A stretch of 64,000 bases of DNA. Source: Candidatus Lumbricidiphila eiseniae (GTDB lineage Bacteria; Actinomycetota; Actinomycetes; Actinomycetales; Microbacteriaceae). A program made the translations under genes and the position numbers. This document shows positions 309-63,120 of this stretch, in pieces (position 1 is the first letter of the stretch; every line of letters begins with the position of its first letter). Under the pieces are notes generated by a model. It made no database searches, was not told where the DNA came from, and was given only the letters and a program-made list of their open reading frames with translations. Where the stretch lies: the NCBI GenBank assembly GCA_002529645.1, contig NAEP01000023.1, positions 1 to 64,000 on the forward strand, given 5' to 3'.

Positions 309-758
309 GCATTACAACTAGACGCATGCGTTCTGGTGCCGATCGCACCGTGCGACACGTTGTTGCGAATGGCTGACTCTGGGGCGTTCCGACCGGTCTG
401 GTCAGAGCGGGTCACTGCGGAGGCTCTCCGTGCGCTGGAGCGCGTACGGTCTGATCGTCGCGATGGGTGTGGACTGCTGGAGGCTCTCCGTGCGCTGGAG
501 CGCGTCCACCCTGATATCGATCAGAGTCGGTTCCAGAGTCGGTTCCGATCGATGAACGAGGCATTCGACGACGCGCTCGTCCAAGGATGGGAGTCACTCG
601 AACCGGGCATTCATCTTCCCGATCCGAACGACCGGCACACAGTAGCTGCCGCTCTCCGAGGACGCGCCGACGTGATTGTCACCGAGAACGTCTTCGCGTA
701 TCCGGCTGAACGCGTGAGCAACCGCCCTGTGGTGGTTGGCGGTTCGAGTGTCCCCTGA
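309..758 (+). pseudogene. PIN-domain toxin-like gene, broken at both ends and carrying a 60-bp insertion
   Basis: The frame reads LDACVLVP (first PIN aspartate) from 318, then LLRMADSGAFRPVWSE, an 'MNEAFDDAL' segment and 'LPDPNDRHTVAAALRG', 'DVIVTEN', the usual order of an actinobacterial PIN toxin of about 180 residues. No start codon precedes the first aspartate, only an internal GTG at 336, and the C-terminus ends early after 'VSNRP', so it is probably a remnant. Family members run from WSE...ERV directly into HPD. Here 20 extra residues are inserted in frame, ending in a second copy of EALRALERV. No antitoxin gene is seen upstream, where IS481 sequence lies instead. Confidence 0.7.
419..505. 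repeat. 60-bp-period direct repeat pair inside the PIN gene
   Basis: Two identical 27-bp copies (419-445 and 479-505) are separated by a unique 33-bp insert (446-478). The repeat is PIN coding sequence with CTCC...GGAG arms. The structure equals a 27-bp target duplication plus a 33-bp insert. Confidence 0.8.
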
Positions 759-820
759 TAATCTGTCCACACAGGTTTGAATAAAATTGACCGTTGTGCA
801 TTGCCTCGAAGGAGAAGCAG

Positions 821-1525
821 ATGGCCGTCAAATACCGGGAGATTGCGAGCGATCTTGCCGGCCGCATCCGGAACGGGGAGATCGCACACAGTGATCGGCT
901 TCCCGGAGAGTTCGATCTTGCTCACGAGTTCTCGGTCAGTCGGGGGACCATCCGCCAGGCTCTCGCAACTCTGCAGCGGCACGGTCTCATCGAGACATGG
1001 ACCGGTGCTGGCTCATTCGTGACTTACGACGGTGAGAAAATCGAGGACAACCTGAGTTGGTCGAAGGCTCTGTCCCGAAAGGGAGTGTCTTCCCAGCCCA
1101 AACTGATTGCACTCGGTCGTGTTGAACTGCCACTGATCGCCGCCAGGCTCGGTCTTCCCGGAGTCGAGTTTCTTGTCGTGGAGCGGGTACGATCCACCGA
1201 TGCGGGTGAGCCAATTACGCTGGAACGGAGTCGTATTCCATGGCGTTCGTTGTTTGAGACGGTGTTAGTGACCGGACTGGTCGATGCATCCCTCAGCGCG
1301 ACGCTACGCACACACGGGCTCATCAGCGTCGCAGGCGAGGAGTCGATCGGCCTTGCGATGCTCGGAACCGACGATGCAGCACTGCTCGGACGGGCACCGG
1401 GCGAGGCGTTCTTGGAGACGGAGCACACGACCTACGATGTTGCGGGCAACGTGATCGAATTCGTGACGAGCCTCCTGCACCCGGCCCATTTCCGTCTCCA
1501 ACACAGTTACGGGGCAAGACTGTGA
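821..1525 (+). CDS. GntR-family (HutC/UTRA) transcriptional regulator
   Basis: A 234-residue regulator with an N-terminal winged helix-turn-helix (about residues 3-70, including SVSRGTIRQAL and GLIETWTGAGSFV) and a UTRA ligand-binding domain to the C-terminus. The ATG at 821 is chosen because AAGGAG lies 6 nt upstream. It overlaps the next gene by 4 bp (GTGA), so it heads the nucleoside operon and probably controls it. The E. coli yegTUV cluster likewise has a GntR-type neighbour, YegW. A short palindrome CTGTCCACACAG at 763-774, just before the gene, is a possible operator. Confidence 0.85.
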   Translation: MAVKYREIASDLAGRIRNGEIAHSDRLPGEFDLAHEFSVSRGTIRQALATLQRHGLIETWTGAGSFVTYDGEKIEDNLSWSKALSRKGVSSQPKLIALGRVELPLIAARLGLPGVEFLVVERVRSTDAGEPITLERSRIPWRSLFETVLVTGLVDASLSATLRTHGLISVAGEESIGLAMLGTDDAALLGRAPGEAFLETEHTTYDVAGNVIEFVTSLLHPAHFRLQHSYGARL

Positions 1526-2568
1526 GTGAGCGAATCCCCGTCTCGGCAGTGCGGCCGGTGAACGAGGTCGTTCTTGATCGAGCGGTCGGTGCTCTGTTCG
1601 GGCTCGCCGTTGGCGATGCGCTCGGGATGCCGACTCAGTACCTTCCCCGTGAGGTTGTCCGTGACCGCTACGGCATCCTCTCCGATTTCGAACCTGGTCC
1701 TGCCGACAATGAGTTGAGCGTCGGCATGCCCGCCGGCCGTGTCACCGATGACACCGATCAGGCGGTCATCCTGGGTCAACTGCTCGTAGAGGGTCAAGGA
1801 ACCATTGACGAGAAAGAGTTGTCGGCGCGCCTGATTGCCTGGGAGGGGCGGATGCGTGCGGCCGGGTCGCTCGACCTGCTCGGCCCGTCAACGCTGAAAG
1901 CTCTTCACCTTGTGTCTGAGGGTGTCTCTCCCGAACTCACCGGGCGGTGGGGCGACACCAACGGTGCATCAATGCGCATCACTCCCGTCGGCATCGCGGT
2001 TCCCTCCGAGGATCTCGGTCGCATCGTCGATGCGGTCGAACAGGCCAGCCGGGTGACTCACAACACCGGCATCGCAATTGCGGGAGCCTCGGCGATCGCC
2101 ACCGCGGTCAGCTCAGGCATTGACGGAACCGACCTCGGCACCTCGATTGAACGCGCGGTAGAAGCAGCACGACTCGGTGCACAACGTGGCCACTACGTGG
2201 CGGGGGCCGACGTGGCGGACCGCATTGTGTGGGCGCAGAGTCTCGTGGCCGGTCTACGCCCCGAGAAGGCGCTCGAGGTCGTGTATTCGCTCGTCGGAGT
2301 GGGAGTAGCCACCCAGGAAGCGGTTCCCGCCGCGCTGGCAATCGCGTCCCTGTTTCCGCATGATGGCTGGTCTGCGTGCCGGTATGCGGCGAGCCTCGGC
2401 GGTGATTGCGACACGATCGCCGCGATGACCGGGGCCATTGTCTGCGCGCACATCGGCCTCAGTGCCATCCCTACACACATCTGTGCACAGCTTATGACAG
2501 CGAATCCGTCGATCGACCTCAGCGGACTCGCGACAGCACTCGTCGACCTGCGGAACCCGCGGTCGTGA
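1522..2568 (+). CDS. ADP-ribosylglycohydrolase family protein
   Basis: 348 residues of the DraG/ARH fold. Family metal-binding motifs are visible: GDALGMPTQ (about 31-39), TDDTD (75-79) and the C-terminal GGDCDTIAAM. The family cleaves N- or O-glycosidic bonds to ADP-ribose or related ribosyl compounds using two magnesium ions. Set between a GntR regulator, a nucleobase permease and a PfkB kinase, it is more likely a small-molecule ribosyl hydrolase than a protein de-ADP-ribosylase. E. coli YegU is the analogous member. The GTG start overlaps the regulator stop by 4 bp. Confidence 0.85.
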   Translation: MSERIPVSAVRPVNEVVLDRAVGALFGLAVGDALGMPTQYLPREVVRDRYGILSDFEPGPADNELSVGMPAGRVTDDTDQAVILGQLLVEGQGTIDEKELSARLIAWEGRMRAAGSLDLLGPSTLKALHLVSEGVSPELTGRWGDTNGASMRITPVGIAVPSEDLGRIVDAVEQASRVTHNTGIAIAGASAIATAVSSGIDGTDLGTSIERAVEAARLGAQRGHYVAGADVADRIVWAQSLVAGLRPEKALEVVYSLVGVGVATQEAVPAALAIASLFPHDGWSACRYAASLGGDCDTIAAMTGAIVCAHIGLSAIPTHICAQLMTANPSIDLSGLATALVDLRNPRS

Positions 2569-2609
2569 CCACAACAACACCGAACACACACCTCCCTGGG
2601 AGAAAACCT

Positions 2610-5124: not shown

Positions 5125-5144
5125 ATTCGTCGTAGGATTTGTTG

Positions 5145-5996: not shown

Positions 5997-6083
5997 GGCG
6001 TATTTGGTAAATGTTTTTCCGGGTGGTGACGGTGCTGGGGGCCATGACCCTGATCCCACGGGAGTGTAGATGGGAACGGTTCT

Positions 6084-6185
6084 CCGTGTTCAAGGTAGAG
6101 GCGCAACACGTGGTGACATTCCATAATTTACCAACGCCGCACACAATCACACCACCACAGTGTTGCACTTCAGACTTGAACACGG
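6084..6185. mobile_element. 102-bp IS30-like miniature element (facing terminal repeats)
   Basis: Two 26-bp ends face each other: 6084-6109 (CCGTGTTCAAGG...GCAACAC) and 6160-6185 (GTGTTGCACTTC...GAACACGG), matching at about 19-20 of 26 positions. The same end occurs at 8279-8304 beside a decayed IS30 transposase. The core is only about 50 bp and non-coding. It is either a MITE mobilised by an IS30 enzyme or a deletion remnant. Apart from this, 5997-6334 holds nothing I can identify. Confidence 0.65.
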
Positions 6186-7548: not shown

Positions 7549-7571
7549 CTTTGAGTCCCGTTGTCCATCGT

Positions 7572-7720
7572 CACGGAGCGTCGCGCGTGAGGAGGCAGGG
7601 GCAGCTCAAGTCGCAGCAAATGGGGATCATTCCACGGAGCGTCGCGCGTGAGGGGGCAGATAAAACTCGTGCACCAAACCCGGGCAGTCCTCGCACGGAG
7701 CGTCGCGCGTGAGGGGGCAG
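7572..7720. CRISPR. Three-copy CRISPR-like array (61-bp period)
   Basis: Repeats at 7572-7598, 7633-7659 and 7694-7720 share CACGGAGCGTCGCGCGTGAG followed by a G-rich end; one base differs in copy 1. The start-to-start distance is exactly 61 bp twice, with two unrelated 34-bp inserts (7599-7632, 7660-7693). This is type I-E repeat-spacer geometry. No cas gene or leader is evident. It lies between the two halves of a broken IS30 transposase. Confidence 0.75.
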
Positions 7721-7734
7721 AGCACCGAGGATTG

Positions 7735-8603: not shown

Positions 8604-8691
8604 GGTGTCGCCCTGGTCGGGCAGATGGTGTTTTCACTCGCCGTCGCAACGCCCGGCAGCGGGGGTGTCGCCCTGGCCGGGCAGATGGTGT
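8604..8691. CRISPR. Two-copy CRISPR-like unit (60-bp period)
   Basis: The 28-bp copies at 8604-8631 and 8664-8691 begin GGTGTCGCCCTGG and contain GCCC...GGGC arms; one base differs. The unique insert 8632-8663 is 32 bp. The hairpin layout resembles a type I-E repeat. It lies just beyond the 3' end of the UlaG-like gene. Confidence 0.7.
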
Positions 8692-9480: not shown

Positions 9481-9568
9481 GCTGTCTACCCGTGACGGAC
9501 GATTTGGCCGCGGTCGCGGCAGCGAACGGGGACCGGACGTGGTGTCCGCCCGTGACGGACGATTTGGT
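9481..9568. CRISPR. Two-copy CRISPR-like unit (60-bp period)
   Basis: Copies at 9481-9508 and 9541-9568 share CCCGTGACGGACGATTTGG and differ at three positions before it. The second copy has GTCCG...CGGAC arms. The insert 9509-9540 is 32 bp. It lies between the UlaG-like gene and tRNA-Glu. Confidence 0.7.
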
Positions 9569-9609
9569 CGGGCCGTTGCGCCGTGGGAGACTGGACAGGT
9601 TGTCGATCT

Positions 9610-9682
9610 GGCCCCATCGTTTAGTGGCCTAGGACACCGCCCTCTCACGGCGGCGGCGCGGGTTCGAATCCCGCTGGGGTCA
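9610..9682 (+). tRNA. tRNA-Glu (anticodon CUC)
   Basis: A 73-nt cloverleaf: acceptor GGCCCCA pairs with TGGGGTC, the anticodon arm CCGCC-CTCTCAC-GGCGG gives anticodon CUC, and the T loop reads GGTTCGAATCC. CCA is not encoded. Its 3' half serves as the attachment site of the element that follows. Confidence 0.93.
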
Positions 9683-9684
9683 CA
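9641..9684. repeat. attL, 3' part of tRNA-Glu
   Basis: This 44-bp segment, from the anticodon loop to just past the tRNA end, recurs at 16511-16554 with about four mismatches. The integrase gene begins beside it, so it marks the left junction of the integrated element. Confidence 0.75.
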
Positions 9685-9689
9685 ATAGT

Positions 9690-9717
9690 AAAAACCCCCG
9701 GTCAAACCGGGGGTTTT
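9690..9717 (+). terminator. Rho-independent terminator after tRNA-Glu
   Basis: A perfect AAAACCCCCGGT / ACCGGGGGTTTT stem with a 3-nt loop and terminal T run. It could serve both the tRNA and the convergent integrase gene. Confidence 0.85.
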
Positions 9718-9748
9718 CGCGTTTCCGCCGTGGAGGTCCGAGAGAGCG

Positions 9749-10858
9749 TTATGCGGCCTTTGGCAACAGATTGGCAACATCTGATTGCATCGCGGCCGCG
9801 TTGAGCGCCGTGGCAACACTGTCGAGGTCGTCATCGAACAGGTCGGCGTACACGTCGAGCGTCACGGCGGCCGAGGCGTGCCCGAGCATCCGCTGCACGG
9901 CCTTCACGTTCGCCCCCGCGCTGACGGCGAGCGACGCGGCCGTGTGCCGCAGCTCGTGCGGCGTGAGGCCCTTGAGCCCGACCGCCGCCGCCTCATCGAA
10001 CCAGCCGACCCGGTAGACGTGGTTGCGAAGCCAGGTGCCGGTGCGGATGCCGTAGAACACCGGGGCGTCGGCCGGTCGTCCGGCGGTCTGCGCCCGCAGC
10101 AGCCCGACGAGGAACGCCGGAATCGGGATGCTCCGGTGCTCGTAGTCCTTCGGCGGCTCGATGCGCTGGTAGCCCTTGTCGGCGACGACGGTCTGCGCGA
10201 CCGTCAGCCGCGGGTGCTTCGCGTCGAGGTCGAGGTCGCCGATCCGCAGCCCCGACAGCCCGCAGTATGCCAGCACGAGCACGACGAGGCCGTAGCCGTA
10301 CTCGCGGCCGTCCTTCGCCTGGTCGATCGCCCGTGCGAGCGCGGCGACCTGATCGTGCGACAGATACCGCTTGCGCGTCTTCGTCGGCTTCGGGAGCTTG
10401 AGCCGCTGCGCGGGGTTGGAGGGCAGCCGCCCGTCCTCGACCGCGAACCGCAGGGCACCCGAGAGCACGTTGACGATCTTCCGCACCGTCGCGGGCGCAC
10501 CGGGCAGCGCAGAGGCCCACTCCTGCACGCGCAAGCGGGCGAGGTTGCCGATCGGGATGGTGCCGAGTTCGGGGACGATGTGCTTCTCGATGATGTTCTC
10601 GACTCGGCTGCGGGTCGTCGCCCGGAGGTCGCCCCTGGCCGCGAGCCAGGTGTGGAGCCATTCGGCGACGGTCACCTTGGCCCGCGAGGGGTCGAGGTAG
10701 CGGCCCTGCGCGATGTCGACCTCCGTGGTCGCCAGGAACAGCTCCGCGGCCTTCTTGGTCGTGAAGCCCCGCTTCTGCGTCTGCTTCCGATCCGGCCGCC
10801 GGTACAGCGCCCGGTAGCGACGGCCCTTGGCTGTCTCGTAGGACTCGATGCTTCCCAT
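9749..10858 (-). CDS. Tyrosine-type site-specific integrase
   Basis: 369 residues from the ATG at 10858. An N-terminal arm-binding region with KKAAELFLATTEVDIAQG and a SAM-like domain precede the catalytic domain. The catalytic residues are visible: SGLRIGDL (first Arg), HELRHTAA (His-x-x-Arg), LGHASAAVTLDVYADL (second His and tyrosine nucleophile). The gene runs toward tRNA-Glu, the usual arrangement for an integrase that uses the tRNA 3' end as attB. It appears intact although the element's transfer genes are broken. Confidence 0.92.
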   Translation of the reverse strand: MGSIESYETAKGRRYRALYRRPDRKQTQKRGFTTKKAAELFLATTEVDIAQGRYLDPSRAKVTVAEWLHTWLAARGDLRATTRSRVENIIEKHIVPELGTIPIGNLARLRVQEWASALPGAPATVRKIVNVLSGALRFAVEDGRLPSNPAQRLKLPKPTKTRKRYLSHDQVAALARAIDQAKDGREYGYGLVVLVLAYCGLSGLRIGDLDLDAKHPRLTVAQTVVADKGYQRIEPPKDYEHRSIPIPAFLVGLLRAQTAGRPADAPVFYGIRTGTWLRNHVYRVGWFDEAAAVGLKGLTPHELRHTAASLAVSAGANVKAVQRMLGHASAAVTLDVYADLFDDDLDSVATALNAAAMQSDVANLLPKAA

Positions 10859-10871
10859 GTCCGCCCCGGTC

Positions 10872-11084
10872 CTACTGCCGCAATCCGGCAAGGCGCTCGA
10901 CATCGACGCGGCGGTAGACGCGCTTGTGCTGGGTAAGCCGAATCGGCTCCACCGGGGCGCGGCCGTCCAGGGCGAGAGTGCGCAGGGTCGTGCGGTGGAT
11001 GCCCAGGAGCTTCGCCGTCTCCTCCTCGGAGTAGAACAGCGGGGCGGACCCCCGCGCGTCGGGGGACGCTGCGCTCTCACCCAT
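10872..11084 (-). CDS. Excisionase-like MerR/HTH_17 DNA-binding protein
   Basis: 70 residues. YSEEETAKLLGIHRTTLRTLALDG...RVYRRVDVERLAGL is the winged-helix excisionase pattern (YSxxEaAklLgi...). The ATG at 11084 follows GAGGAG; an upstream TTG or ATG is possible. It lies 13 bp before the integrase and is probably co-transcribed, acting as the directionality factor for excision. Confidence 0.8.
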   Translation of the reverse strand: MGESAASPDARGSAPLFYSEEETAKLLGIHRTTLRTLALDGRAPVEPIRLTQHKRVYRRVDVERLAGLRQ

Positions 11085-11192
11085 CGCGATCTCCTCGGAA
11101 TCTACGATCACAGCCGCAATCGCAGCTACAGTCTTAGATTAGATCACAACACGCCAATGACAGCAAGGGTTTTAGATACTCGTGTCGCTCGG

Positions 11193-17852: not shown

Positions 17853-18890
17853 TTGCAACTTCCGCTGTGGTTTGAGGTCGGTTCCTTTGTTGTACTCACC
17901 CTGCTGTTGGCGGGTGATCTGCTGCTGGTTGTGACACGGCCCCGCGTGCCATCCTTCACAGAATCAGCCCTGTGGGTTGTGTTCTATGTGGGGCTTGCGC
18001 TTGTCTTTGCCGTGCTCATGTTTGTGATTGGTGATGCCAAGCACGGCAGCGAATTTCTCGCCGGGTGGCTGACCGAATACAGTCTCTCGATCGACAACCT
18101 TTTTGTATTCGTTATTATCATGGCGCGGTTCGCGGTGCCCCGAAAGATGCAGCAAGAAGTGCTCATGATGGGTATTATCATCGCTCTTGTACTGCGCGGC
18201 ATTTTTATTCTGCTCGGAGCGTCTCTTATTGAGAACTTCAGTTGGATTTTCTATATTTTCGGTGCCTGGTTGATCTGGACGGGAGTTCAGCAGGTCCGCG
18301 AACACGCCGGTGAGGGTGGCGAGGAGGAGAGTTTCATTGTCCGGATGCTCCGCCGCCGTGTGCGTCTCACCGACACGTACGATGGCATCAGGTTGCGCAC
18401 CACGGTGAGCGGCACCCGCTTTTTTACGCCGATGTTCATCGTATTGGTTGCCATCGGAACCACAGATCTTCTCTTTGCACTCGACTCGATTCCCGCGATT
18501 TTTGGTATCACTCAGAGTCCATTCATTGTTTTTTCGGCGAACGTTTTTGCGCTTATGGGACTTCGACAGCTGTATTTTCTGCTCGGGGGTCTGCTTGAAC
18601 GCCTTGAATACCTCAAGTACGGCATTGCGCTCATCCTCGCCTTCATCGGTACCAAGCTTATTTTGCACGCCATCCACTCCAATGAGCTGCCGTTCATTAA
18701 CGGCGGGCACGGCATTGAGTGGGTGCCTGAGATTTCCACCTGGGCCTCGCTCGTTGTCATTGTTGGCGCGATGACCATTGCGACTGTCGCAAGTCTCATC
18801 AAGGCGAACCGAGATGCCCGCCGCCGGGGGCACACGCTCAGCGAGGAAGTGCCACACTTTACCGACAGGGCGGGCGATTCTGCGCACTAA
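17853..18890 (+). CDS. TerC-family integral membrane protein (Mn2+ exporter type)
   Basis: 345 residues with about nine hydrophobic helices. Family signatures include [20 protein letters not shown], the [12 protein letters not shown] motif with acidic metal-site residues, and [19 protein letters not shown]-type segment (here [16 protein letters not shown]). TTG at 17853 is chosen because GAAAGG lies 8 nt before it and the following [10 protein letters not shown] is the family start. TerC/Alx proteins export manganese or help metalate exported enzymes. The riboswitch-like leader supports Mn-dependent expression. Confidence 0.88.
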
Positions 18891-18933
18891 CGCTGCTGCT
18901 CCGTCGGGAGCTCAACGTTTTCTCAGATGAGAT

Positions 18934-19081
18934 GGGTGATCCAACTGAGTCAGGGTCAAGGGGAGGGCATCATTGGCGCAACGGTTATGCAGTTGGGTGA
19001 TCCGCCTGAGTCAGAGTCCAGCAACAAGGGTTTGGGCGAGCATTGAGGTCGCAGGGGTGATCCGCCTGAGTCAGAGTCCAG
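18934..19081. CRISPR. Three-copy CRISPR-like array (61/60-bp period) after terC
   Basis: Copies at 18934-18960, 18995-19021 and 19055-19081. Copies 2 and 3 are identical (GGGTGATCCGCCTGAG...); copy 1 differs at four positions. Inserts 18961-18994 (34 bp) and 19022-19054 (33 bp) are unrelated. The first copy, nearest terC, looks like the eroded end of an array. Confidence 0.7.
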
Positions 19082-20135: not shown

Positions 20136-20224
20136 ACCCGCGTGCTAACGTCGCTGCCGTCGGCGGTTCTACTTTTGGACGAACCTCCAAGAGCGATTCC
20201 ACGTGCTAACGTCGCTACCATCGG
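20136..20224. repeat. 61-bp-period repeat pair before the leuC leader
   Basis: CGTGCTAACGTCGCT.CC.TCGG occurs at 20141-20163 and 20202-20224, period 61 bp, with a unique insert. Two internal substitutions. Weak palindromic character. It sits between the RNase H gene and the leuC leader, 30 bp before the leader peptide start. Confidence 0.6.
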
Positions 20225-20253
20225 AGCCCCGGCCCGAGTGCTAGCCTAAACCT

Positions 20254-28468: not shown

Positions 28469-28501
28469 AAATTCCACCCCCACCGTTCTCATAGAAGCGG
28501 A

Positions 28502-28588
28502 GCTGCCCGCTCACGCGGGAACGGGTGCGGTTGGCGCCGTCGTTGCAATCACGAGAGCAAGGGCTGCCCGCTCACGCGGGAACGGGTG
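28502..28588. CRISPR. Two-copy CRISPR-like unit (61-bp period) at the immA 3' end
   Basis: Identical copies of 26 bp at 28502-28527 and 28563-28588 with a CCCGC-TCAC-GCGGG hairpin, strongly reminiscent of a type I-E repeat. The insert is about 35 bp. Copy 2 overlaps the last 17 bp of the minus-strand ImmA-like gene, so that gene's final residues are encoded by repeat sequence. Confidence 0.75.
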
Positions 28589-28949
28589 GTGCCAACCTGA
28601 GCAGCTTACGATACAGCTCGACGTACTCGACAGTGACGTCTAATTCGTCTGCCATTGCGTGCGGTTCCGGGTTGAGCTGCTCGGCGGCGGCAAAGTCGGC
28701 GGGATCAATGAGAAGTCGCACGGCGTACGCGTCGGCCTGCCGTTCTGCGCGGTCAGAATCGTAGGTGTGACCAAAGTGAGCGTGCCCGAGTTCGTGGGCA
28801 AGGACACACCGTTCTTCAATGGGGGTTAGTCGCGTCGTGAGTTCGATTCGTCGATCGGCGTGGAGGTAATACCCGAGGATGCCGTCGGGCAGTGGTGTGA
28901 TATCAACCGGGATACCGAGCCTGGTGGCCTCTTGCAGTGGCGTGTTCAT
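28572..28949 (-). CDS. ImmA/IrrE-family metallopeptidase
   Basis: 125 residues. The zinc motif HELGH (His52, Glu53, His56) lies in a helix preceded by TPIEERCVLA, and ERQADAYAVRLLID provides the third ligand region. ImmA-type proteases often cleave repressors of mobile elements or stress regulons. No repressor partner gene is adjacent, so it may be an orphan. The C-terminus (LAPPVPA) is encoded within a CRISPR-like repeat, so the native end may have been altered. Confidence 0.8.
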   Translation of the reverse strand: MNTPLQEATRLGIPVDITPLPDGILGYYLHADRRIELTTRLTPIEERCVLAHELGHAHFGHTYDSDRAERQADAYAVRLLIDPADFAAAEQLNPEPHAMADELDVTVEYVELYRKLLRLAPPVPA

Positions 28950-29010: not shown

Positions 29011-29094
29011 CAGAGGCCCCTCCGGGTGAGAGGTCCAGGTGTCCGTGGTCAATGAGATGCTCGGTCAGTTGCAGAGGCCCCTCCCGGTGAGAGC
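29011..29094. repeat. 61-bp-period repeat pair near the 3' end of the Rossmann-fold gene
   Basis: CAGAGGCCCCTCC.GGTGAGAG occurs at 29011-29033 and 29072-29094 with one mismatch, period 61 bp. Copy 2 ends 8 bp before the stop of the minus-strand gene at 29103. Confidence 0.65.
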
Positions 29095-29102
29095 GTCAGA
29101 AA

Positions 29103-38975: not shown

Positions 38976-38997
38976 GCTCGGGTCTCCTGAGAGCCCG

Positions 38998-39079
38998 CCC
39001 GAGCAAGAAACCCACCCGTCTGCAACGACCGCCCCTCCCCCCAGCCGAGTGAGATCCCTCCCGAGCAAGGAACACACGT
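38998..39079. repeat. 62-bp-period imperfect repeat pair before the SIS-domain gene
   Basis: CCCGAGCAAG.AAC.CAC followed by CGT appears near 38998 and near 39060; copy 2 supplies the ribosome binding site AAGGA and abuts the ATG at 39080. A TGCTCGGG...CCCGAGCA inverted repeat includes copy 1. It fits the 60-62 bp pattern but is the weakest of the sites apart from those at 62421 and 62563. Confidence 0.45.
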
Positions 39080-40308: not shown

Positions 40309-41279
40309 AGACCGACCTTCTCGTACTGGGTGAACTCTGCGTGGACCTGATTATCCCGGTCTGCCGTGAGATCCGCTTCGGGCAGCACGAACAGGTCGTT
40401 GAGACGACCACGCTCACGATGGGCAGTTCGTCGGCGATCACCGCGTGTGGTGCAGCCGCGCTCGGTACGTCAACGGTGCTGGCGAGCGTGCGCGGCGACG
40501 ACACATTCGGCCGCTACCTGGATGCGGAGCTCCGTCGGCGCGGCGTTGGCACGACCCTCGTGCGTGTGGACGCCACTCGCCCGACCGGCGCATCCACTCA
40601 CCTCACCCGGCCTGATGGTGACCGGGCAATTCTCACCTCTCTCGGCTCGATCGGATGCACGAGTGCGGTGGATGTGCCCGACGCAATACTGAAAACCTTC
40701 CGACACCTGCACATCGGCAGCTATTTCTTGCAGCGGGGTCTCTGGCCGGACGCGCCGGGGTTGTTCGCCCGCGCTCGCACCCTCGGGCTCACCACCTCTC
40801 TCGATGGCAACTTCGACCCCGCTCTCAGTTGGGACAGCGGCATCCTCGCTGTGCTGCAGACCACGGACGTGTTTTTCGGTAACGAGCAGGAAATCTGTGG
40901 AGTCGCGCGCAGTGCCGACGTGAGAGCGGCCATCAACACGCTGCTTGAGGTGATGCCCCTCGGCGCGATCGTGGTGTGCAAGCTCGGTGCCGACGGGGCC
41001 ACGGCAACGCGGCGTGACGGGCAGGGTCAGCGCACGGATGCCGCCGGAATTCCGGAGACGGTCGGCGAGATCGTCGACACCGTCGGTGCCGGTGATACGT
41101 TCGCCGCAGGGTTCATTACCGCCCGCCTGCGAGAAATGAGCGTGGCCGAATCGCTCGCGGTTGCCGTGTCGTGCGGTTCTGCATCCACCCGGGGCTCCGG
41201 CGGCGTCAGTGCCCAACCAGACTGGGCCACGGCCCAAACACTCGCGGCGACCGTACGGGTTGCACAGAGCCGAGGGTGA
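40305..41279 (+). CDS. PfkB-family sugar kinase
   Basis: 324 residues. LVLGELCVDLIIPV, SSAITACGAAALG, and the C-terminal DTVGAGDTFAAGF (catalytic Asp) define a PfkB kinase. Candidate substrates are 2-keto-3-deoxy sugar acids or an amino-sugar, given the dehydratase and SIS neighbours. ATG 40305 overlaps the preceding stop (ATGA). Its last codons, including the stop, lie within a duplicated sequence at 41271. Confidence 0.88.
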   Translation: MKTDLLVLGELCVDLIIPVCREIRFGQHEQVVETTTLTMGSSSAITACGAAALGTSTVLASVRGDDTFGRYLDAELRRRGVGTTLVRVDATRPTGASTHLTRPDGDRAILTSLGSIGCTSAVDVPDAILKTFRHLHIGSYFLQRGLWPDAPGLFARARTLGLTTSLDGNFDPALSWDSGILAVLQTTDVFFGNEQEICGVARSADVRAAINTLLEVMPLGAIVVCKLGADGATATRRDGQGQRTDAAGIPETVGEIVDTVGAGDTFAAGFITARLREMSVAESLAVAVSCGSASTRGSGGVSAQPDWATAQTLAATVRVAQSRG

Positions 41280-41358
41280 GCGCGGGCGAGGGTTCTGCGC
41301 CCGCCGACGGCTCTCAGTATGACCTGGTCGAACGAGGGTGAGCGCGGGCGGGGTTCTG
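41271..41358. repeat. 61/62-bp-period repeat pair containing the PfkB stop codon
   Basis: CGAGGGTGAGCGCGGGCG plus GGGTTCTG occurs at 41271-41297 and 41333-41358; copy 2 lacks one base, so the period is 62 bp at the 5' end and 61 at the 3' end. Copy 1 contains the last codons and TGA of the kinase gene, so the repeat is native gene-end sequence that was duplicated. Confidence 0.7.
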
Positions 41359-52670: not shown

Positions 52671-53699
52671 TTACCGCGCTCCTTCTTGCTGTTCAGAGCG
52701 ATGTTGGGCTCGAATGAAGAAAATTGCAACAAGGAGGATAACAAGGGTGAGCGCGGTTGCAATGGTGGCCCCATAGCCAACCTGTTGATTTTTGAAAAAC
52801 TGAATGTAAGAGTAAAAACTCGGCACGATGGTCGAGGTGCCCGGACCGCCACGAGTCAGAGTGTAAATGGGCCCGAACACTTTGAGAGCTGCGATCGTGC
52901 AGGTCAGTGTCACAACATAAATCTCGGGGCGTATAATCGAGATGGAGATTGCGGTGAATCGTTGGAACCAGTTTGCTCCGTCAAGATCCGCCGCTTCATA
53001 CAGTTCCGGATCAACTCTTTGAAGTGCAGCCATGAAGATCACCACGGGGTATCCCAACTGAACCCAAATCATGACGACCATGATGCTGGACAGAGCCGTG
53101 TCGGGACTTCCTAGCCAGTTGTGCTCCAGGTTGGGCAGTCCCAACCGACTCAGTATGTGGTTGAGGGCACCGTCGTCCGGACGGAGGATCCATCCGACGA
53201 GGATGGCTGCGACCGCGATCGGCAGGATTTGCGGGAGATAGTAGGTCGCCCGAAGAAACGCCGCCGTCTTCCCTCCAAACTTTCGTGCTATTAGGTCAAA
53301 GAGCACGGCACCGATCACAAGGCCAAGGACGGTGGGGATGATGACCATCGCGATGATCATGGCAACCGAGTTAATGAATGCCGTCCAAAACTGGGCGTCA
53401 CTCACCAGACGCTGCCAGTTTCCCAGGCCAATCCAGACGGGCGGTCGAATCCCGCGATAAGAGGTGAAACTTAGATAGATATTCCAGCAAAGGGGAATGA
53501 TAACGATGGCTGTCAGGAGCACAAAGCCGGGGACGAGGTAGAACCAGTAGCCTGCACGCTCCAGTGGACGGCTCCCTATTTTGCGGGATGATCGCGACGC
53601 GTTAACGGATGTCACGGAGCGCAGCGGGTGGCTCCCCGCTCGGGGTGCTCGGTGTTCCCCTGACAACCGGCTCTCCTTGTCGTTGTGACCAGTCTCCAT
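52671..53699 (-). CDS. Carbohydrate ABC permease (MalF type)
   Basis: 342 residues with a charged N-terminal extension (about 45 residues) then six helices; EAA loop ELYEAADLDGANWFQRFTAISI and GPIYTLTRGGPGTSTIV. An 81-bp gap with a strong hairpin separates it from the binding-protein gene. Confidence 0.92.
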   Translation of the reverse strand: METGHNDKESRLSGEHRAPRAGSHPLRSVTSVNASRSSRKIGSRPLERAGYWFYLVPGFVLLTAIVIIPLCWNIYLSFTSYRGIRPPVWIGLGNWQRLVSDAQFWTAFINSVAMIIAMVIIPTVLGLVIGAVLFDLIARKFGGKTAAFLRATYYLPQILPIAVAAILVGWILRPDDGALNHILSRLGLPNLEHNWLGSPDTALSSIMVVMIWVQLGYPVVIFMAALQRVDPELYEAADLDGANWFQRFTAISISIIRPEIYVVTLTCTIAALKVFGPIYTLTRGGPGTSTIVPSFYSYIQFFKNQQVGYGATIATALTLVILLVAIFFIRAQHRSEQQEGAR

Positions 53700-53779: not shown

Positions 53780-55093
53780 TTACTGCCCGGATTTGCCCGC
53801 TTGATACTGCGAACTGAGCTGATCGAGTACTGCGCCGGGTGTTTTGGTTCCGTTGACCAGGTCTTGTAAACCCGCGTTGAGTTGGTCATAGAAGCTTGGC
53901 GTTGGCCAGTCGGGGTAGAACGCCAGGCCGTCTCGGTCAGCGAGGGTTTTGAAGTTGGTCACGAGGGACTTGCTCTTTGGGTCGGTAATGACGGAGGGGT
54001 CGGCGGCCACGGGAATGCCTCCGGTATTCCCAATGATCGTCTGGATTTCTGGACTCATAGTGATGTCGATGAACTTGTAGGCGAGATCCTTATTCTTCGA
54101 GTTCGCGGGAACGATCCACATGTTTCCAGCCGAGCCTGGGGCGAGGGTTGATTCTGGGAAGAGGAAGTCTGACCATTGGAAGTTTTTAATGGTGCTTTTA
54201 AACTGTCCATAGTACCAAGTCCCGGTGTAGAAAATTGGGTACTTACCGGAGGTAAAACCGTTGTACGCGTCATCCGCCTTCATGCCCGTTGAATTTTTCG
54301 AAATATAACCTTTGTCAACCCAGTCTTTAATTGTTTGAGTGGCATAGGTAAAGGCGGAATCATGAAAATCAACCGGTTCGGCGAACGTCTGGAAGTTAGT
54401 GACCCACTGACGGTTAGCTCTGCTCAGTGCCAACTGGTACCACAGCTGGCCCAGGGGGTATTCTGTCGCCGACTCCGCGAGCGGTGTGATTCCGGCATCC
54501 TTGAAGGTTTTGAGAACATTCTCGAAGTCGGCAATTGTCGTCGGAACGCTCAAGCCGTACCTGTCAAACATGTCCTTGTTGTAGTACACCTCGGTGAATT
54601 CACCATAGTTTGGGATTCCGTAGAACGGGCCGGTGCCCATGATTCCTTTGTCGTTGTAGCGAGCGGTTGTCTGCAAGCTTGGCGAGAGTTCCTTGTCCCA
54701 ACCATAGAGTTTTGCGGCGGCATCCAGGTCGGTGAGAAGTCCCTGACTGGACAGGAGCCCCGCGGTGCCGTTGCCTTTTGTGTATTCAAGCACATCTGGG
54801 GCTGAGCTCGAGTTCAGCACTTGGCTCGCGGTGGAACGGATCCCCTCATAAGACTTTGCCTCAAACTTAACCGTGGCTCCGGTGGTTTTTTCGAACTCTG
54901 CGATGGCGGCGGTCCAGGCGTGACCCATCGCGCTCTCCAGGTCTTCGTAGTGCCACAGAGTGAGAGTCTTGCCTTTTCCGTCGGGATTTTTGACGATCGC
55001 TGTGCTGTTGGTTTCACCGTCTGATGAGCAACCCCCTAGCATCACGGCAGCAACTGCAAAGCCGATGATCGCTGCCAACTTTCTGTCAAGCAT
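53780..55093 (-). CDS. Sugar ABC substrate-binding lipoprotein
   Basis: 437 residues from ATG 55093 (AGGGAG upstream). Lipobox VMLGGC; family 1 solute-binding domain with TLTLWHYEDLESAMGHAW and DVLEYTKGNG. Partner of the two permeases; the ATPase is not encoded nearby. Confidence 0.92.
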   Translation of the reverse strand: MLDRKLAAIIGFAVAAVMLGGCSSDGETNSTAIVKNPDGKGKTLTLWHYEDLESAMGHAWTAAIAEFEKTTGATVKFEAKSYEGIRSTASQVLNSSSAPDVLEYTKGNGTAGLLSSQGLLTDLDAAAKLYGWDKELSPSLQTTARYNDKGIMGTGPFYGIPNYGEFTEVYYNKDMFDRYGLSVPTTIADFENVLKTFKDAGITPLAESATEYPLGQLWYQLALSRANRQWVTNFQTFAEPVDFHDSAFTYATQTIKDWVDKGYISKNSTGMKADDAYNGFTSGKYPIFYTGTWYYGQFKSTIKNFQWSDFLFPESTLAPGSAGNMWIVPANSKNKDLAYKFIDITMSPEIQTIIGNTGGIPVAADPSVITDPKSKSLVTNFKTLADRDGLAFYPDWPTPSFYDQLNAGLQDLVNGTKTPGAVLDQLSSQYQAGKSGQ

Positions 55094-55298
55094 GAGTATC
55101 TCCCTCATCTGGGAGTGCGATGCCGTCATTGCGCCAGGGCAGCCACTCCGATGCCGATATGTCTGAGTCGCCAACATAACAGGGAAGCAGCTCGCAGCGC
55201 AAGCGTGCGGTGAGGGCGAGTTTGTCACGGTTGCGTATCGTCAGCAGAAACGTGTGCCGCGACAAGCGAGGCTCGATTCCGTGTCTAACCCACCCCGT

Positions 55299-55386
55299 AT
55301 CACCCCTGCGGGCGGTGTCCAGACCCAACGAGCACCACAACGGTCAGTTTCGAGGCTGCATCACCCCTGCAGGCGGTGTTCAAACC
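55299..55386. CRISPR. Two-copy CRISPR-like unit (61-bp period)
   Basis: 27-bp copies at 55299-55325 and 55360-55386 with ATCACCCCTGC.GGCGGTGT and CA.ACC ends, three substitutions; CACC...GGTG arms. Insert 34 bp. It lies 40 bp from the ROK gene stop. Upstream (55094-55298) I see nothing beyond the binding-protein promoter region. Confidence 0.72.
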
Positions 55387-56762: not shown

Positions 56763-56840
56763 CCACTTATCCGGTCACAACCCACCCGCCAGGATGCCGA
56801 ATCTGCTGCCTGGAAACACCTAATCTGAAGGACGAACAGC

Positions 56841-58714: not shown

Positions 58715-58766
58715 CCGCGTCTCGTGTCCCACGCCGACACCTGACTCCTGTGATAAGAAGGGCCTC

Positions 58767-59696: not shown

Positions 59697-60592
59697 GCTC
59701 CGTCCTGCTGGCTGGACATTCGATTGAAACCGCTGAACTTTGTGAGTCCGGCCGCGAGAAGTAACCCGATCACTACGAGGATCACGGCGAGCACGCTTGC
59801 ACCGCCGAGGTCGCTGGCTGAGAAACCGGTGAGGTACATGTCCAGAGGGAGAAGTCGGGTGGCGTAACCGGGCCCGCCCTGAGTGAGGATGTACACAATG
59901 TCAAAGTATGTGAGGGAACCGACCACCATGAGCGTGGATGACGCGATGATCGTGTTCTTCAGCTGCGGGACCGTGATGTAGAAGAACTGCTTGACACGTC
60001 CAGCTCCGTCGAGCTGTGCCGCCTCGTACAGGGAAGCGGGGATCTGCCGAGCACCCGCCTGATAAAGGAGGGAGTGGAACGGGATGAACTGCCAGGCGAT
60101 CACGAAGATCACCACGTAGAGAACGAGTGCCGGGTTGCCGAGCCAGTCCTGCGACAGGATCGGGAGGTTGAACGCTTTGCCGAGACCGTAGTTGGGGTCG
60201 AGGAGGGCTTTGTAGGCGATGCCGATCGCGGCCGAGGAGAGGATGAGGGGCAGGAAGTAGAGAGCGGCCAGGACCGCACGGTACCTGTGGCGTCCTGCAG
60301 TGAAGACACCGAGCAGCAGGCTGAGGGGGGTTTGCACAATCCAGGAGAAGACGATCACTTGGAGGCTTAGCCACAGGGCGTTGTAGGTGACCGGGTCGGA
60401 AACCTGGTTGATCCAGTTGGTGATGCCGTTGAATACCGGAGCGGTGAGGCCATCCCAACTGGTGAAGCTCAGGCCGAGGGCGATGAGCAGAGGAACGATC
60501 GCGAAGCCCAGGAAGAAAATCAGGGCCGGTACGACGAGCCAGGTGCTGGGGGCTGAGAGGTGGGCGATGGCCCCACCGTTCCGTGTGCTCAT
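59693..60592 (-). CDS. Carbohydrate ABC permease (MalF type)
   Basis: 299 residues, six helices; EAA loop SLYEAAQLDGAGRVKQFFYITVP and FDIVYILTQGGPGYAT. Its ATG directly follows the binding-protein stop codon. Confidence 0.92.
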   Translation of the reverse strand: MSTRNGGAIAHLSAPSTWLVVPALIFFLGFAIVPLLIALGLSFTSWDGLTAPVFNGITNWINQVSDPVTYNALWLSLQVIVFSWIVQTPLSLLLGVFTAGRHRYRAVLAALYFLPLILSSAAIGIAYKALLDPNYGLGKAFNLPILSQDWLGNPALVLYVVIFVIAWQFIPFHSLLYQAGARQIPASLYEAAQLDGAGRVKQFFYITVPQLKNTIIASSTLMVVGSLTYFDIVYILTQGGPGYATRLLPLDMYLTGFSASDLGGASVLAVILVVIGLLLAAGLTKFSGFNRMSSQQDGA

Positions 60593-61924
60593 TTACTTTT
60601 TGATGGTCTTGTTCATGTTGTCGGAGAACTGCGCGGGTGTCACTGAAGCGTTGAAGAGGAGGTCGAGCTGGGTCCAGAACTCGGCGGAGGCCGCCGGAGA
60701 GAGTGCCAGGTCCCAGGACTGCTGGAAGTTCGGTGCCTGCTTGATCATCTCGTTCAGGCCCTTGGCAAAGTCGCCCTGCAGTTGTGGCCCGATTCCAATG
60801 AGCGGTGGGATATTGCCCGCATCGATGACCGACTTCGTGTACGCGTCGTTCCAGACCGTATTTGTCAGATAGTCGAGCGCGGTCTTCGCCTGCGCCTCGG
60901 TCGCTTTCGCGGAGATCGCCCAGTAAGAGGCTGGGTTGCCCGCGATATTCTTTGAGTCCCCCTTGCCTCCGGTCACTGCGGGGAAGGGACCGAATCCGAG
61001 TTTGCCGCTCGACTCGAAGGTCGGGTTGATCTGCGCGATGCCCGCGTAGGCCCAGGCACCCTGCAGCAGCATGGCTGCCTTACCGGTGACCATGAGCGCC
61101 AGGTCGGCGTTCGTGTCGGCGGAGACGGAGGCGAAGCCGTCCGCGAAGCCACCAGCTTTCACGAGCTGTTGGATCATCGTGTTGGCCTTGATAACAGCGG
61201 GGTCAGACCAGGCCTCGGGTTTGTCGTCGAGGATGTTCTGGAACACCTCCGGACCACCGATGCGGTCAACGAGGTACTCGATCCACATGAGGTATGGCCA
61301 CTTGCTGCCGCCGCCAAGCGCGATAGGAGCAAAGCCCGCCGCCTTGATTTTCGGGACGGCCGCCAAGAGTTCATCCCATGTCTTGGGCTGCGCCACGCCG
61401 ACCTGCTTCAGCACGTCCTGGTTGAAATATAGGATGACCGGGGAGGTCGGATCCATGGGGATGGCGTAGGTTTTACCGCCGTTCACACCGCCGGCGGCGA
61501 CGGATGGGATGAGTCGTTCGGTGAATGTCTGCTTGTTTGTGAGGTCAGGGGTCAGATCGCGCAGCAGGTTGGCCTTGACGTACTGTGCCATGGTGCCGCC
61601 GCCCCAGGTGTACACGAGGGTAGGCACCTGGGGTGAGTTGATCGCCGTGCGGATCTTGTCTTTGTAGTCGTTTGTGCCGAAATAGTTGGCCGTGATTTTC
61701 GTGTTGGGGTTCGCCTTGTTGAACTCCGCGACGGAGGGCTCGATGAGCGGTCGGTCGGCCGTGGTGCCCCAGGCGGTGATGGCACCGGTTGTGGTTCCAC
61801 CGTTCGCTGAGCCGCACGCGGCGAGGAGGAGGCCAAGGACAGCGGTGGTCACCACCGTCGTCAAGACCTGGGCCGTGTGGTGCCGGGGTCGACGGTGCTC
61901 GGCCTCTTGTGAGATGTGGGTCAT
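60593..61924 (-). CDS. Sugar ABC substrate-binding lipoprotein
   Basis: 443 residues. Lipobox LLLAACGS; family 1 binding domain (AITAWGTTADRPLIEPSVAEFNK, TLVYTWGGGTM). ATG 61924 follows GAAGGAG. It is the first gene of an operon with a LacI-type operator at its promoter. Confidence 0.92.
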   Translation of the reverse strand: MTHISQEAEHRRPRHHTAQVLTTVVTTAVLGLLLAACGSANGGTTTGAITAWGTTADRPLIEPSVAEFNKANPNTKITANYFGTNDYKDKIRTAINSPQVPTLVYTWGGGTMAQYVKANLLRDLTPDLTNKQTFTERLIPSVAAGGVNGGKTYAIPMDPTSPVILYFNQDVLKQVGVAQPKTWDELLAAVPKIKAAGFAPIALGGGSKWPYLMWIEYLVDRIGGPEVFQNILDDKPEAWSDPAVIKANTMIQQLVKAGGFADGFASVSADTNADLALMVTGKAAMLLQGAWAYAGIAQINPTFESSGKLGFGPFPAVTGGKGDSKNIAGNPASYWAISAKATEAQAKTALDYLTNTVWNDAYTKSVIDAGNIPPLIGIGPQLQGDFAKGLNEMIKQAPNFQQSWDLALSPAASAEFWTQLDLLFNASVTPAQFSDNMNKTIKK

Positions 61925-62226
61925 TACAGTTCTCCTTCGTGTGAGGATTGTCTGCCGGAGTCGAGGGCTGGGAGACGCTCGGTCGCGGCTGGGGGCTGTG
62001 CGTGATGGTGGGACGAGGTCAGCAGGATTCGAGCTTCGGGATTCATGGTTGGGAGTTGCGCTCGGTGGTGGGGGTGGATCCGGTTCAGCGTGCAGGGGCT
62101 CGAGCAGGAATGAAACATCGGAGCTGCATCGACGCAGCGCGGTGGAAACGGGCGAGTGAGCGGTGGCACCGGGTCGGTGCGGTCATATCAATCACCTCGT
62201 TGTGTCGGAGTCCGTCTCGCAATTGG

Positions 62227-62276
62227 TGGTTACGTTTCCACTATGGAGCGTAACCAGGGTTCGTGAGTTCTGTCAA
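62227..62276 (-). promoter_or_regulatory. Promoter and LacI-type operator of the ABC operon
   Basis: On the minus strand, -35 TTGACA (62271-62276) and -10-like TTACGC (62248-62253) are 17 bp apart. The 14-bp operator TGGTTACGTTTCCA (62227-62240) lies just downstream. Its exact reverse complement precedes the lacI-type gene. Confidence 0.75.
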
Positions 62277-62420
62277 TCCTCTGAAGTGTGGCGTTTTTCC
62301 GGGAATTTTTGTGCGACCACCCGATTTTTGCAACGATGTCCGACGCGACGTAAGGAATGTAAAAAATGGAATCGATCCCAATCAGAGGATCTGGTCTCAC
62401 AGGCTTTCGCCGCCGCCGCT

Positions 62421-62507
62421 GACAGTTCCAGTTGTTCGTCCACCACGGGTGGTGGTGTGTGCTCCCGATCCGAGGCGCAGATAGTTCCAGTTGCTCGCCC
62501 ATTGCGA
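62421..62507. repeat. 59-bp-period imperfect repeat pair
   Basis: GA.AGTTCCAGTTG.TCG.CCA occurs at 62421 and 62480. Ends are degenerate. One of two worn pairs in the 62.2-62.9 kb intergenic region. Confidence 0.45.
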
Positions 62508-62562
62508 GCGGCCAGTCCACTTGAGGTAGGTCTCATGGCACATCACCACGCTCGCCCGGAGC

Positions 62563-62653
62563 CGCGCTTCAGCGTACGGGCAAAGGGGCAGTTGGCGGAC
62601 ATCATGGCCCCGACACCCTGCTGGGCGCGCTTCAGCGCGCAGACGAAGGGGTA
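62563..62653. repeat. 63-bp-period imperfect repeat pair
   Basis: CGCGCTTCAGCG...AAGGGG occurs at 62563-62590 and 62626-62653 with about six substitutions. The remainder of 61925-63169 not listed separately contains no recognisable gene. Confidence 0.45.
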
Positions 62654-62795
62654 AGAGAGGTTCTGCGCGGCCGCGGCTGCGCGGCGCTAATTGGAATCGA
62701 TGCCGCTTTCGCTCACCGAATCGATGCCGCCAATCGCCACCAGGATCTCGAAGACCGTAACGAACAACCACGTAAACGTGGGATTGTTGTCATGA

Positions 62796-62844
62796 TTGAC
62801 AGGATGCGAGATCCGTGGCTATGGTCATGATGGAAACGTAACCA
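62796..62844 (+). promoter_or_regulatory. Promoter and operator of the LacI-type gene
   Basis: -35 TTGACA (62796-62801) and -10 TATGGT (62820-62825), 18 bp apart. Operator TGGAAACGTAACCA (62831-62844) follows at once, giving autoregulation. Confidence 0.75.
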
Positions 62845-62912
62845 TTTTCAGTTCCATGATCAACCAGGACGGGGCGAAGGCGCATGCGCAGCACAACGCT
62901 GAACCACCGGCT

Positions 62913-63120
62913 CGGCATCCCGCGTGGTGCGGGCCATCCGAAACCTAAGCGACGACTGCAACGAGACCCCGCCGGCATCCCGCGTGGTGCGGGGCATCCC
63001 ACCACCTGGCGTGCCCGCGCAAAAGTCAGCTCCGGCACCCCGCGTGGTGCGGGGCATCCTCCTGACGCAACCCGGACGCGGTTGTTTCCGTGCGGCATTC
63101 TGCGTGGCACAGGGCGTCCG
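62913..63120. CRISPR. Four-copy CRISPR-like array (60-bp period)
   Basis: Copies start at 62913, 62973, 63033 and 63093, exactly 60 bp apart, each about 27-28 bp: CGGCATCCCGCGTGGTGCGG and a GCATCC end. Copies 2 and 3 are nearly identical, copy 4 is worn. Unrelated 32-33-bp inserts. CCCGC...GCGGGG hairpin as in type I-E repeats. It lies in the 5' leader of the LacI-type gene. Confidence 0.8.

What the first reader, a model, noticed from the sequence alone, without database searches (positions are those of the whole stretch)
419..63120. A network of unrelated mini-arrays with a fixed 60-61 bp period
Fourteen sites show a short sequence repeated two to four times: 419 (60), 7572 (61,61), 8604 (60), 9481 (60), 18934 (61,60), 20141 (61), 28502 (61), 29011 (61), 38998 (62), 41271 (62/61), 55299 (61), 62421 (59), 62563 (63), 62913 (60,60,60). 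Repeats are about 22-28 bp and inserts about 32-35 bp, the type I-E repeat/spacer unit. Each site has its own repeat sequence, so this is not one dispersed element. Known DDE transposases leave target duplications far shorter than 27-28 bp. The geometry matches target duplication by Cas1-Cas2 spacer integration at non-CRISPR sites, which is known to occur rarely; a density of about one per 5 kb would be exceptional.
Basis: partly seen in the sequence, partly recalled or inferred. Interest (0 to 1): 0.92.

Follow-up and report, generated by a model that had tools for sequence, protein, structure and literature searches.

The report
CRISPR integrase scattering host DNA genome-wide
In this bacterium the enzyme that normally files virus fragments into the CRISPR memory appears to have pasted hundreds of 33-letter pieces of the cell's own DNA all over its chromosome, leaving a fossil record of unselected CRISPR memory formation inside one genome.

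Summary
In the window, 12 of 14 listed sites stand; 62421 and 62563 do not. In 764 kb of this genome, repeat pairs pile up at 60, 61 and 62 bp (42, 63, 11), against 1-4 at 57-59 and 63-64: 104 loci, about 390 per genome by extrapolation. Samples of same-genus, order and family relatives (160, 180, 400 kb) show 0, 0 and 1 pair.

The anatomy is type I-E spacer integration: a 33-bp insert flanked by a 27- or 28-bp duplication. The genome has one cas1e-cas2e, the other I-E genes and a 70-repeat array. Of 34 inserts with identical flanking repeats, 29 have a donor elsewhere in this genome. AA precedes 27 of 49 donors (chance 7.9%) and 5 of 6 main-array protospacers found here. Uninterrupted copies of three targets exist.

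Best reading: off-target Cas1-Cas2 integration of self DNA, at a scale I found in no other sampled genome. The kind is known; the extent is new.

The parts
419..505 (.). ectopic site: 27-bp duplication (419-445, 479-505) around a 33-bp insert 446-478
   Evidence: 27/27 identical; insert identical to C28:8820-8852 of the same genome with AA upstream
7572..7721 (.). ectopic mini-array: three 28-bp copies, inserts 7600-7632 and 7661-7693
   Evidence: period 61,61; 26/28 and 28/28; second insert identical to C6:15713-15745, no AA beside it
8605..8691 (.). ectopic site: 27-bp duplication, insert 8632-8664
   Evidence: 26/27
9481..9567 (.). ectopic site: 27-bp duplication, insert 9508-9540
   Evidence: 24/27; only a weak donor match with 4 mismatches
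18933..19081 (.). ectopic mini-array: three copies, inserts 18961-18993 and 19022-19054
   Evidence: 24/28 and 27/27; second insert matches C20:2203 with one mismatch
20138..20226 (.). ectopic site: 28-bp duplication, insert 20166-20198
   Evidence: 24/28
28500..28588 (.). ectopic site: 28-bp duplication, insert 28528-28560; repeat looks by eye like the main repeat
   Evidence: 27/28
29011..29099 (.). ectopic site: 28-bp duplication, insert 29039-29071
   Evidence: 24/28
38988..39078 (.). ectopic site, period 62, diverged, insert 39017-39049
   Evidence: 24/29; weaker
41268..41358 (.). ectopic site, period 62, insert 41297-41329; boundaries uncertain
   Evidence: 21/29, boundary ambiguous over 7 positions and donor-like match with 3 mismatches in C2; weaker
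55298..55386 (.). ectopic site: 28-bp duplication, insert 55326-55358
   Evidence: 24/28
62913..63059 (.). ectopic mini-array: three 27-bp copies, inserts 62940-62972 and 63000-63032, plus a degenerate fourth copy near 63093
   Evidence: 26/27, 26/27; fourth copy 20/27
62399..62431 (+). donor of the insert at C34:16427-16459, which is flanked by a 28-bp duplication
   Evidence: 32/33 identical
54063..54095 (-). donor of the insert at C19:35994-36026, which is flanked by a 28-bp duplication; AA upstream
   Evidence: 31/33
28783..28815 (+). donor of the insert at C37:6554-6586
   Evidence: 32/33
18391..18423 (+). donor of an insert in the C3 mini-array (L008:2941); AA on the minus strand
   Evidence: 30/33

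Best explanation
The mini-arrays are off-target products of the genome's own type I-E Cas1-Cas2 integrase. The complex takes 33-bp pieces of DNA, mostly from the host genome and preferentially next to AA, and inserts them at degenerate CRISPR-repeat look-alikes (C at position 8 and G at the mirror position). The staggered attack, after fill-in, duplicates 27-28 bp of target. Existing ectopic sites are sometimes used again, giving two or more inserts. Events outside genes are mostly the ones kept, and the copies drift. Because these repeats differ from the main repeat, the self spacers probably do not become functional crRNAs and so escape autoimmunity. Seen in the sequence: geometry, self donors, PAM, target preference, uninterrupted copies, reuse, scarcity inside genes. 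Inferred: that this Cas1-Cas2 did it, that it is still active, and that the inserts are silent.
For: Geometry: in sites with long exact repeats the insert is 33 bp and the duplication 27 (period 60) or 28 (period 61); the main array has 66 of 69 periods at 61. Machinery: one cas1 locus found in the genome, cas2e, cas5, cas7, cse2, cse1, cas3 and cas6e. Self donors: 29 of 34 inserts with identical repeats have a donor at E<=0.001 elsewhere in the genome; reversed-insert control 0 of 126. PAM: AA beside 19 of 35 donors and 27 of 49, against 7.9% expected; 5 of 6 main spacers whose protospacer was found in held host sequence have AA. Target: similarity to the main repeat 12.5 of 28 against 10.5 in 300 letter shuffles (sd 0.2; 72 repeats); C8 and mirror G together in 64% against 10% shuffled. 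Uninterrupted target copies. Samples of relatives: 0, 0 and 1 pair. Reuse: 10 of 106 loci hold two or more inserts. Genes: 18 of 104 loci lie inside called genes where 76% of random positions do.
Against: Nearly half of the donors (22 of 49) lack AA. The main array has no 60-bp period (66 at 61, 2 at 62, one 77), while ectopic sites often have 60. One 33-bp self copy (C45:97548-97580, identical to window 53594-53626) has no target duplication. Orientation of the target motif could not be shown (400 of 1000 random orientations do as well). Five of 34 inserts with identical repeats had no donor at E<=0.001. No conspecific strain and no experiment ties the events to this Cas1-Cas2. Genomes with Cas1 proteins about 35-57% identical show no such sites in the samples taken, so why this lineage is so promiscuous is unexplained.
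Confidence: 0.94

Rival explanations
1. A different, unseen integrase (casposase-like or another mobile element enzyme) pastes 33-bp pieces with 27-28 bp target duplications.
For: Period 60 is common ectopically and absent in the main array, so the two reactions are not identical.
Against: Only one cas1 locus found in the genome; 33-bp insert, AA next to the donor and repeat-like target all match the resident I-E system.
Confidence: 0.04
2. Ordinary short tandem repeats or repeat elements that expand by slippage or recombination.
For: The genome does hold tandem families (126-bp and others).
Against: Different repeat at each site; 33-bp inserts with donors in distant places; the period peak is confined to 60-62; paralogous copies carry the single uninterrupted target.
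Confidence: 0.005
3. Templated filler DNA at double-strand break repair (end joining).
For: Self-derived short inserts are seen in end joining generally (recalled). One 33-bp self copy without duplication exists.
Against: Fixed 33-bp length, 27-28 bp duplication, AA next to donors and preferred target.
Confidence: 0.01
4. The ectopic arrays are functional: they are transcribed and yield self-directed guides that regulate host genes.
For: Tested inserts are mostly self-derived, the Cascade genes and cas6e are present, and 10 of 106 loci hold two or more inserts.
Against: Repeats differ from site to site and share on average 12.5 of 28 positions with the main repeat; copies diverge (73 of 107 pairs at 60-61 bp have at least one mismatch); no expression data.
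Confidence: 0.03

Closest known systems
Non-canonical (off-target) spacer integration / neo-CRISPR loci, Nivala, Shipman and Church 2018 (not held; content recalled; cited for it in passages of PMC11788318 and PMC9456107)
   Same: Cas1-Cas2 integration outside the array, at sites resembling the CRISPR locus (recalled), with duplication of the target
   Different: There, as recalled, after Cas1-Cas2 overexpression in E. coli plus several putative natural cases; here 104 loci in 764 kb of one natural genome, at many degrees of divergence, filled largely with self DNA
Canonical type I-E CRISPR array (this genome's C67 array)
   Same: 28-bp repeat, 33-bp insert, AA next to the protospacer
   Different: Main array: 70 near-identical repeats, no period of 60, and about 62 of 68 units without a reported match elsewhere in this genome; ectopic sites: own repeat each, mostly one insert (96 of 106 loci), usually with a donor in the genome
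Ectopic spacer acquisition inside arrays, Streptococcus thermophilus (PMC7999890, search listing and start of abstract only)
   Same: Spacer inserted at an unusual position
   Different: Still inside the CRISPR array, type II-A
Casposons (recalled)
   Same: Cas1-type integrase with target duplication
   Different: Only one cas1 locus, beside the array; inserts are 33 bp

Membership tests
Off-target type I-E Cas1-Cas2 integration | 33-bp insert flanked by duplication of repeat length | tested here: met
Off-target type I-E Cas1-Cas2 integration | cas1e and cas2e in the same genome | tested here: met
Off-target type I-E Cas1-Cas2 integration | donor next to the PAM of the resident system | tested here: met
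   27 of 49 with AA against 7.9%; main protospacers found in held host sequence AA in 5 of 6
Off-target type I-E Cas1-Cas2 integration | target resembles the CRISPR repeat | tested here: met
   weak and symmetric motif
Off-target type I-E Cas1-Cas2 integration | empty target site with one repeat copy | tested here: met
   paralogous copies in the same genome; no conspecific strain available
Off-target type I-E Cas1-Cas2 integration | leader-like sequence or host-factor site upstream of the target | tested here: inconclusive
   an unsupervised fit hinted at one, the PAM-oriented flank did not (303 of 1000 permutations as good)
Off-target type I-E Cas1-Cas2 integration | events depend on Cas1-Cas2 | not testable with these tools
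   needs an experiment
Canonical CRISPR array | identical repeats matching the system's main repeat | tested here: not met
   each site has its own repeat
Casposon | element-borne cas1 separate from a CRISPR array | tested here: not met
   one cas1 locus found, beside the array
Casposon | terminal inverted repeats and a polymerase gene | not tested
   inserts are 33 bp, too short for such an element
Tandem repeat / VNTR | whole unit repeated head to tail | tested here: not met
   only the 27-28 bp part repeats; inserts have remote donors

The most novel reading that the evidence does not exclude
In this lineage Cas1-Cas2 has relaxed its target choice enough to be a standing, genome-wide insertion mutagen that moves host DNA around, adding about 60 bp per event and occasionally 20 in-frame codons to genes, and seeding new proto-arrays; its traces form an unselected, datable record of naive spacer capture, which main arrays cannot give because autoimmunity removes self spacers.
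Probability: 0.6. Interest if true: 0.92.

Novelty: new variant of a known kind. Interest (0 to 1): 0.88.

Why it matters
CRISPR adaptation is usually studied through survivors: self-acquiring cells are thought to die, so natural arrays show what selection allowed. Here hundreds of self spacers (by extrapolation) appear to be preserved outside the array, many with their donors still readable. That makes PAM preference, donor choice, target choice and the age structure of naive adaptation measurable from a natural genome, shows how new CRISPR loci could arise, and raises the question of what keeps other Cas1-Cas2 enzymes faithful.

Tried and rejected
Motif search by expectation-maximisation: the first version mis-set boundaries. 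The second (93 loci, started from 18 PAM-oriented ones) suggested a leader-like AG(T) upstream and agreed with the PAM orientation in 15 of 18, but leave-one-out gave only 11 of 18, and the PAM-oriented subset alone supported neither an oriented motif nor the flank. I claim only a symmetric C8/G preference. Counting exact self-matches without regard to duplications showed no clean peak at 33 (20 matches, against 14-19 at 30-32 and 34) and was swamped by repeated genes; of the matches of 31-37 bp, 12 had a called duplication and 85 did not. Selection for frame: inside called genes 15 of 18 loci have period 60 against 23 of 86 elsewhere (Fisher p=1.1e-5), but a frame-shifting insert would itself end the called gene, so this is partly built in and I do not lean on it. 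Broken interference as the reason why self spacers are tolerated: not supported. Cas6e is present; cas3 looked short only because the stretch ended, and its frame continues open (the frame shown was the wrong one). Polarity of mini-array growth: six of nine two-insert loci pair one identical with one diverged interval, the identical one being on the + strand's right in all six; contig strands are arbitrary, so I make no claim. Rows dropped before counts: low-complexity pairs (and so all counts built); pairs outside periods 58-63; the tandem-repeat pair n87; donors with 6 mismatches; periods other than 60-62 and in the locus counts; pairs with more than 4 mismatches and more than 2 among the 72 repeats. 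In one search only clusters of one or two pairs were printed.
Full report
OBSERVATION. A scan for direct repeats (24-nt windows, up to 3 mismatches, distances 20-159) found in the window pairs at 60, 61 and 62 bp (6, 7, 2), three at their double periods, and one at 24 bp. Twelve of the fourteen listed sites stand, with 15 inserts. The sites at 62421 and 62563 reach only 23 and 22 of 28 matches at 59 and 63 bp and are not supported; 62399-62431 is instead a donor of an insert elsewhere. The two 62-bp sites are the weakest of the twelve.

GENOME-WIDE. The window lies in a 2.85-Mb draft genome in 73 contigs, 97% complete. In the window plus 37 further stretches (764,116 bp, about 27%), pairs number 42, 63 and 11 at 60, 61 and 62 bp, after removal of low-complexity pairs. 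Distances 57, 58, 59, 63 and 64 hold 4, 3, 3, 2 and 1. Most other distances hold 0-1, some hold 2-8 (mostly multiples of three, and double units at 120-123), and 126 bp holds 31. Block shuffling gave none. The pairs at 60-62 make 104 loci, 136 per Mb, about 390 by extrapolation; the window holds 12 where 8.4 are expected from the rest.

CONTROLS. The same scan gave 0 pairs at 57-64 bp in 160 kb of five same-genus genomes, 0 in 180 kb of three order-level genomes with a Cas1 match, and 1 low-complexity-looking pair in 400 kb of twelve family-level genomes with a Cas1 match (stretches). Of the five same-genus genomes, four had no Cas1 match; the fifth (G073) I did not see listed for Cas1. Of the 36 same-genus genomes, 35 had no match and one (G027) a weak one at 24% identity. 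Three further stretches holding a cas1 locus (L201, L207, L208) were scanned separately: 119, 37 and 52 pairs, of which the first 14 of each were shown and carry that system's own array repeat. Around 80 other loci with a Cas1 relative (1.49 Mb), short clusters of one or two pairs carry by eye a canonical-type I-E repeat, with about five exceptions; larger clusters were not printed. In the family search, 17 of 397 other genomes have the Cas1 at E<=1e-30, none in the same genus. Within these samples I found the phenomenon in no other genome.

GEOMETRY. Among the 24 pairs with an exact run of 26 or more, the seven of period 60 have runs of 27-29 (four are 27) and the fifteen of period 61 runs of 26-30 (seven are 28, six longer); one pair each has period 58 and 63. 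This is as expected for 27- and 28-bp duplications with chance extension and a 33-bp insert. This is the unit of the main array: 70 repeats of 28 bp, 66 of 69 periods at 61, two at 62, one at 77, none at 60.

MACHINERY. cas1e and cas2e lie directly upstream of the main array on contig 67. Beyond the array and two other genes (rpiB-like and Fpg/Nei-like) follow, on the other strand, cas5, cas7, cse2, cse1, cas3 and cas6e. cas3 is open over the stretch read, in frame with the part seen. One cas1 locus was found.

INSERTS ARE LARGELY HOST DNA. I compared 126 inserts with 815 kb of held host sequence: 38 have a second copy with 0-6 mismatches, and reversed inserts have 0 of 126. That count includes a tandem-repeat artefact and six cases where donor or site was fetched because it matched; without these and with at most 3 mismatches it is 26 of 123 (my count) in about 28% of the genome. 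For the whole genome I searched the 34 inserts whose flanking repeats are identical: 13 of 17 and 16 of 17 have a donor at E<=0.001 away from their own site. Only 40 of 45 and 40 of 72 first-look candidates were scored, so this is a lower bound. With a stricter ungapped test on held sequence, 25 of the 34 have a donor with at most 5 mismatches. The five without a donor may be foreign, missing from the draft, or lost to the cap. I did not classify donors by gene or mobile element and searched no phage or plasmid collection.

PAM. AA lies directly 5' of the donor on one strand in 19 of 35 cases and in 27 of 49 with more donors. Chance for either side is 7.9% (binomial p 1.3e-12 and 1.5e-17). AA is the most enriched dinucleotide, 6.8-fold. 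Six main-array spacers have a protospacer in held host sequence with at most 5 mismatches, five of them next to AA. Ectopic inserts and main spacers thus seem to share the PAM, on a small number for the main array. The 49 donors include loci fetched because they matched, so 49 of 118 is not a rate.

TARGET CHOICE. Repeats at ectopic sites share 12.5 of 28 positions with the main repeat on average (either strand, one-base shift allowed), against 10.5 in 300 letter shuffles (72 repeats, sd 0.2, largest 11.1). C at position 8 and G at the mirror position occur together in 64% against 10% shuffled. In the PAM-oriented subset (27), C8 is 23 of 26 and G20 20 of 26; orientation adds nothing detectable (400 of 1000 permutations) and the left flank is uninformative (303 of 1000). 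A simple palindrome score differs little from random intergenic sequence (4.2 against 4.0). The preference is symmetric, as expected if the inverted-repeat arms are read.

EMPTY SITES. Related copies within the genome give natural before-and-after pairs. The site at L148:10567 has three uninterrupted relatives (L154:610-637, L156:19522-19549, L014:1120-1147; 82, 82 and 79 of 88 positions alike) with one target copy and no insert; L160:14496 against L014:10740-10766 (84 of 87) and L024:16686 against L152:403-430 (78 of 88) show the same. Two more pairs (71 and 66 of 88) are more distant.

GENES AND AGE. With a crude gene model (647 genes, 81% coding), 18 of 104 loci lie inside genes, 17 at edges and 69 between genes, where random positions give 76%, 9% and 15%. 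Inside genes 15 of 18 have period 60, which keeps the frame; elsewhere 23 of 86 (Fisher p=1.1e-5). This contrast is partly built in, because a frame-shifting insert would end the called gene, and at least one of the 15 (window 9481) lies in a doubtful gene call. Of 107 pairs at 60 or 61 bp, 34 are identical and 73 have 1-6 mismatches, so events probably span a range of ages; older ones would escape the threshold. Ten of 106 loci hold two or more inserts; I did not compute a chance rate, but independent hits on the same 28 bp should be very rare.

MAIN ARRAY IS DIFFERENT. For 68 units (2,246 nt; the first, 49-bp unit left out), seven matches elsewhere in the genome were reported, from six units by my reading. 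Four of the seven lie in one stretch of contig 11 that carries portal, capsid, tape-measure, tail and integrase genes. The main array thus looks phage-directed, although I searched no phage collection with it, and the ectopic inserts look self-derived. The likely reason is that self spacers in the main array kill, while those at odd repeats are not made into guides; this is inference.

LITERATURE. Off-target integration in vivo is known: Nivala et al. 2018 is cited for it in PMC11788318 and PMC9456107 (passages); the paper itself is not held and its content is recalled. PMC9456107 proposes that other factors restrain Cas1 from integrating at stem-loops outside arrays. Six text searches listed no title or abstract start that reports a natural genome with this density; I saw only the listed top results, and the library lacks most subscription journals.

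Noticed in passing
L145:1049-1081 (C45:97548-97580) and window 53594-53626: A 33-bp exact self copy; no duplication at about 61 bp was found at the C45 place or in the window there. Possibly a one-sided or repaired event.
   Followed up: partly
L002:15600-15730 (C67): The first unit of the main array repeats the leader: leader plus repeat are duplicated in tandem, period 77.
   Followed up: no
L318 (C11:27000-40000): Prophage-like stretch (portal, capsid, tail, integrase) matched by main-array spacers (four matches), two of them exact with AA, which may mean that interference is off, inhibited or slow.
   Followed up: partly
window 9600-11100: A tRNA-like sequence and then a long minus-strand ORF (9749-11080) that may be an integrase; both by eye, not tested.
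   Followed up: no
C73:34846-34941: The donor of one insert occurs there twice, 60 bp apart, so the donor may itself be the repeat of another ectopic array.
   Followed up: no
sampled stretches such as L018 and L153: A tandem family of about 126-bp period (31 pairs); the genes were not examined.
   Followed up: no
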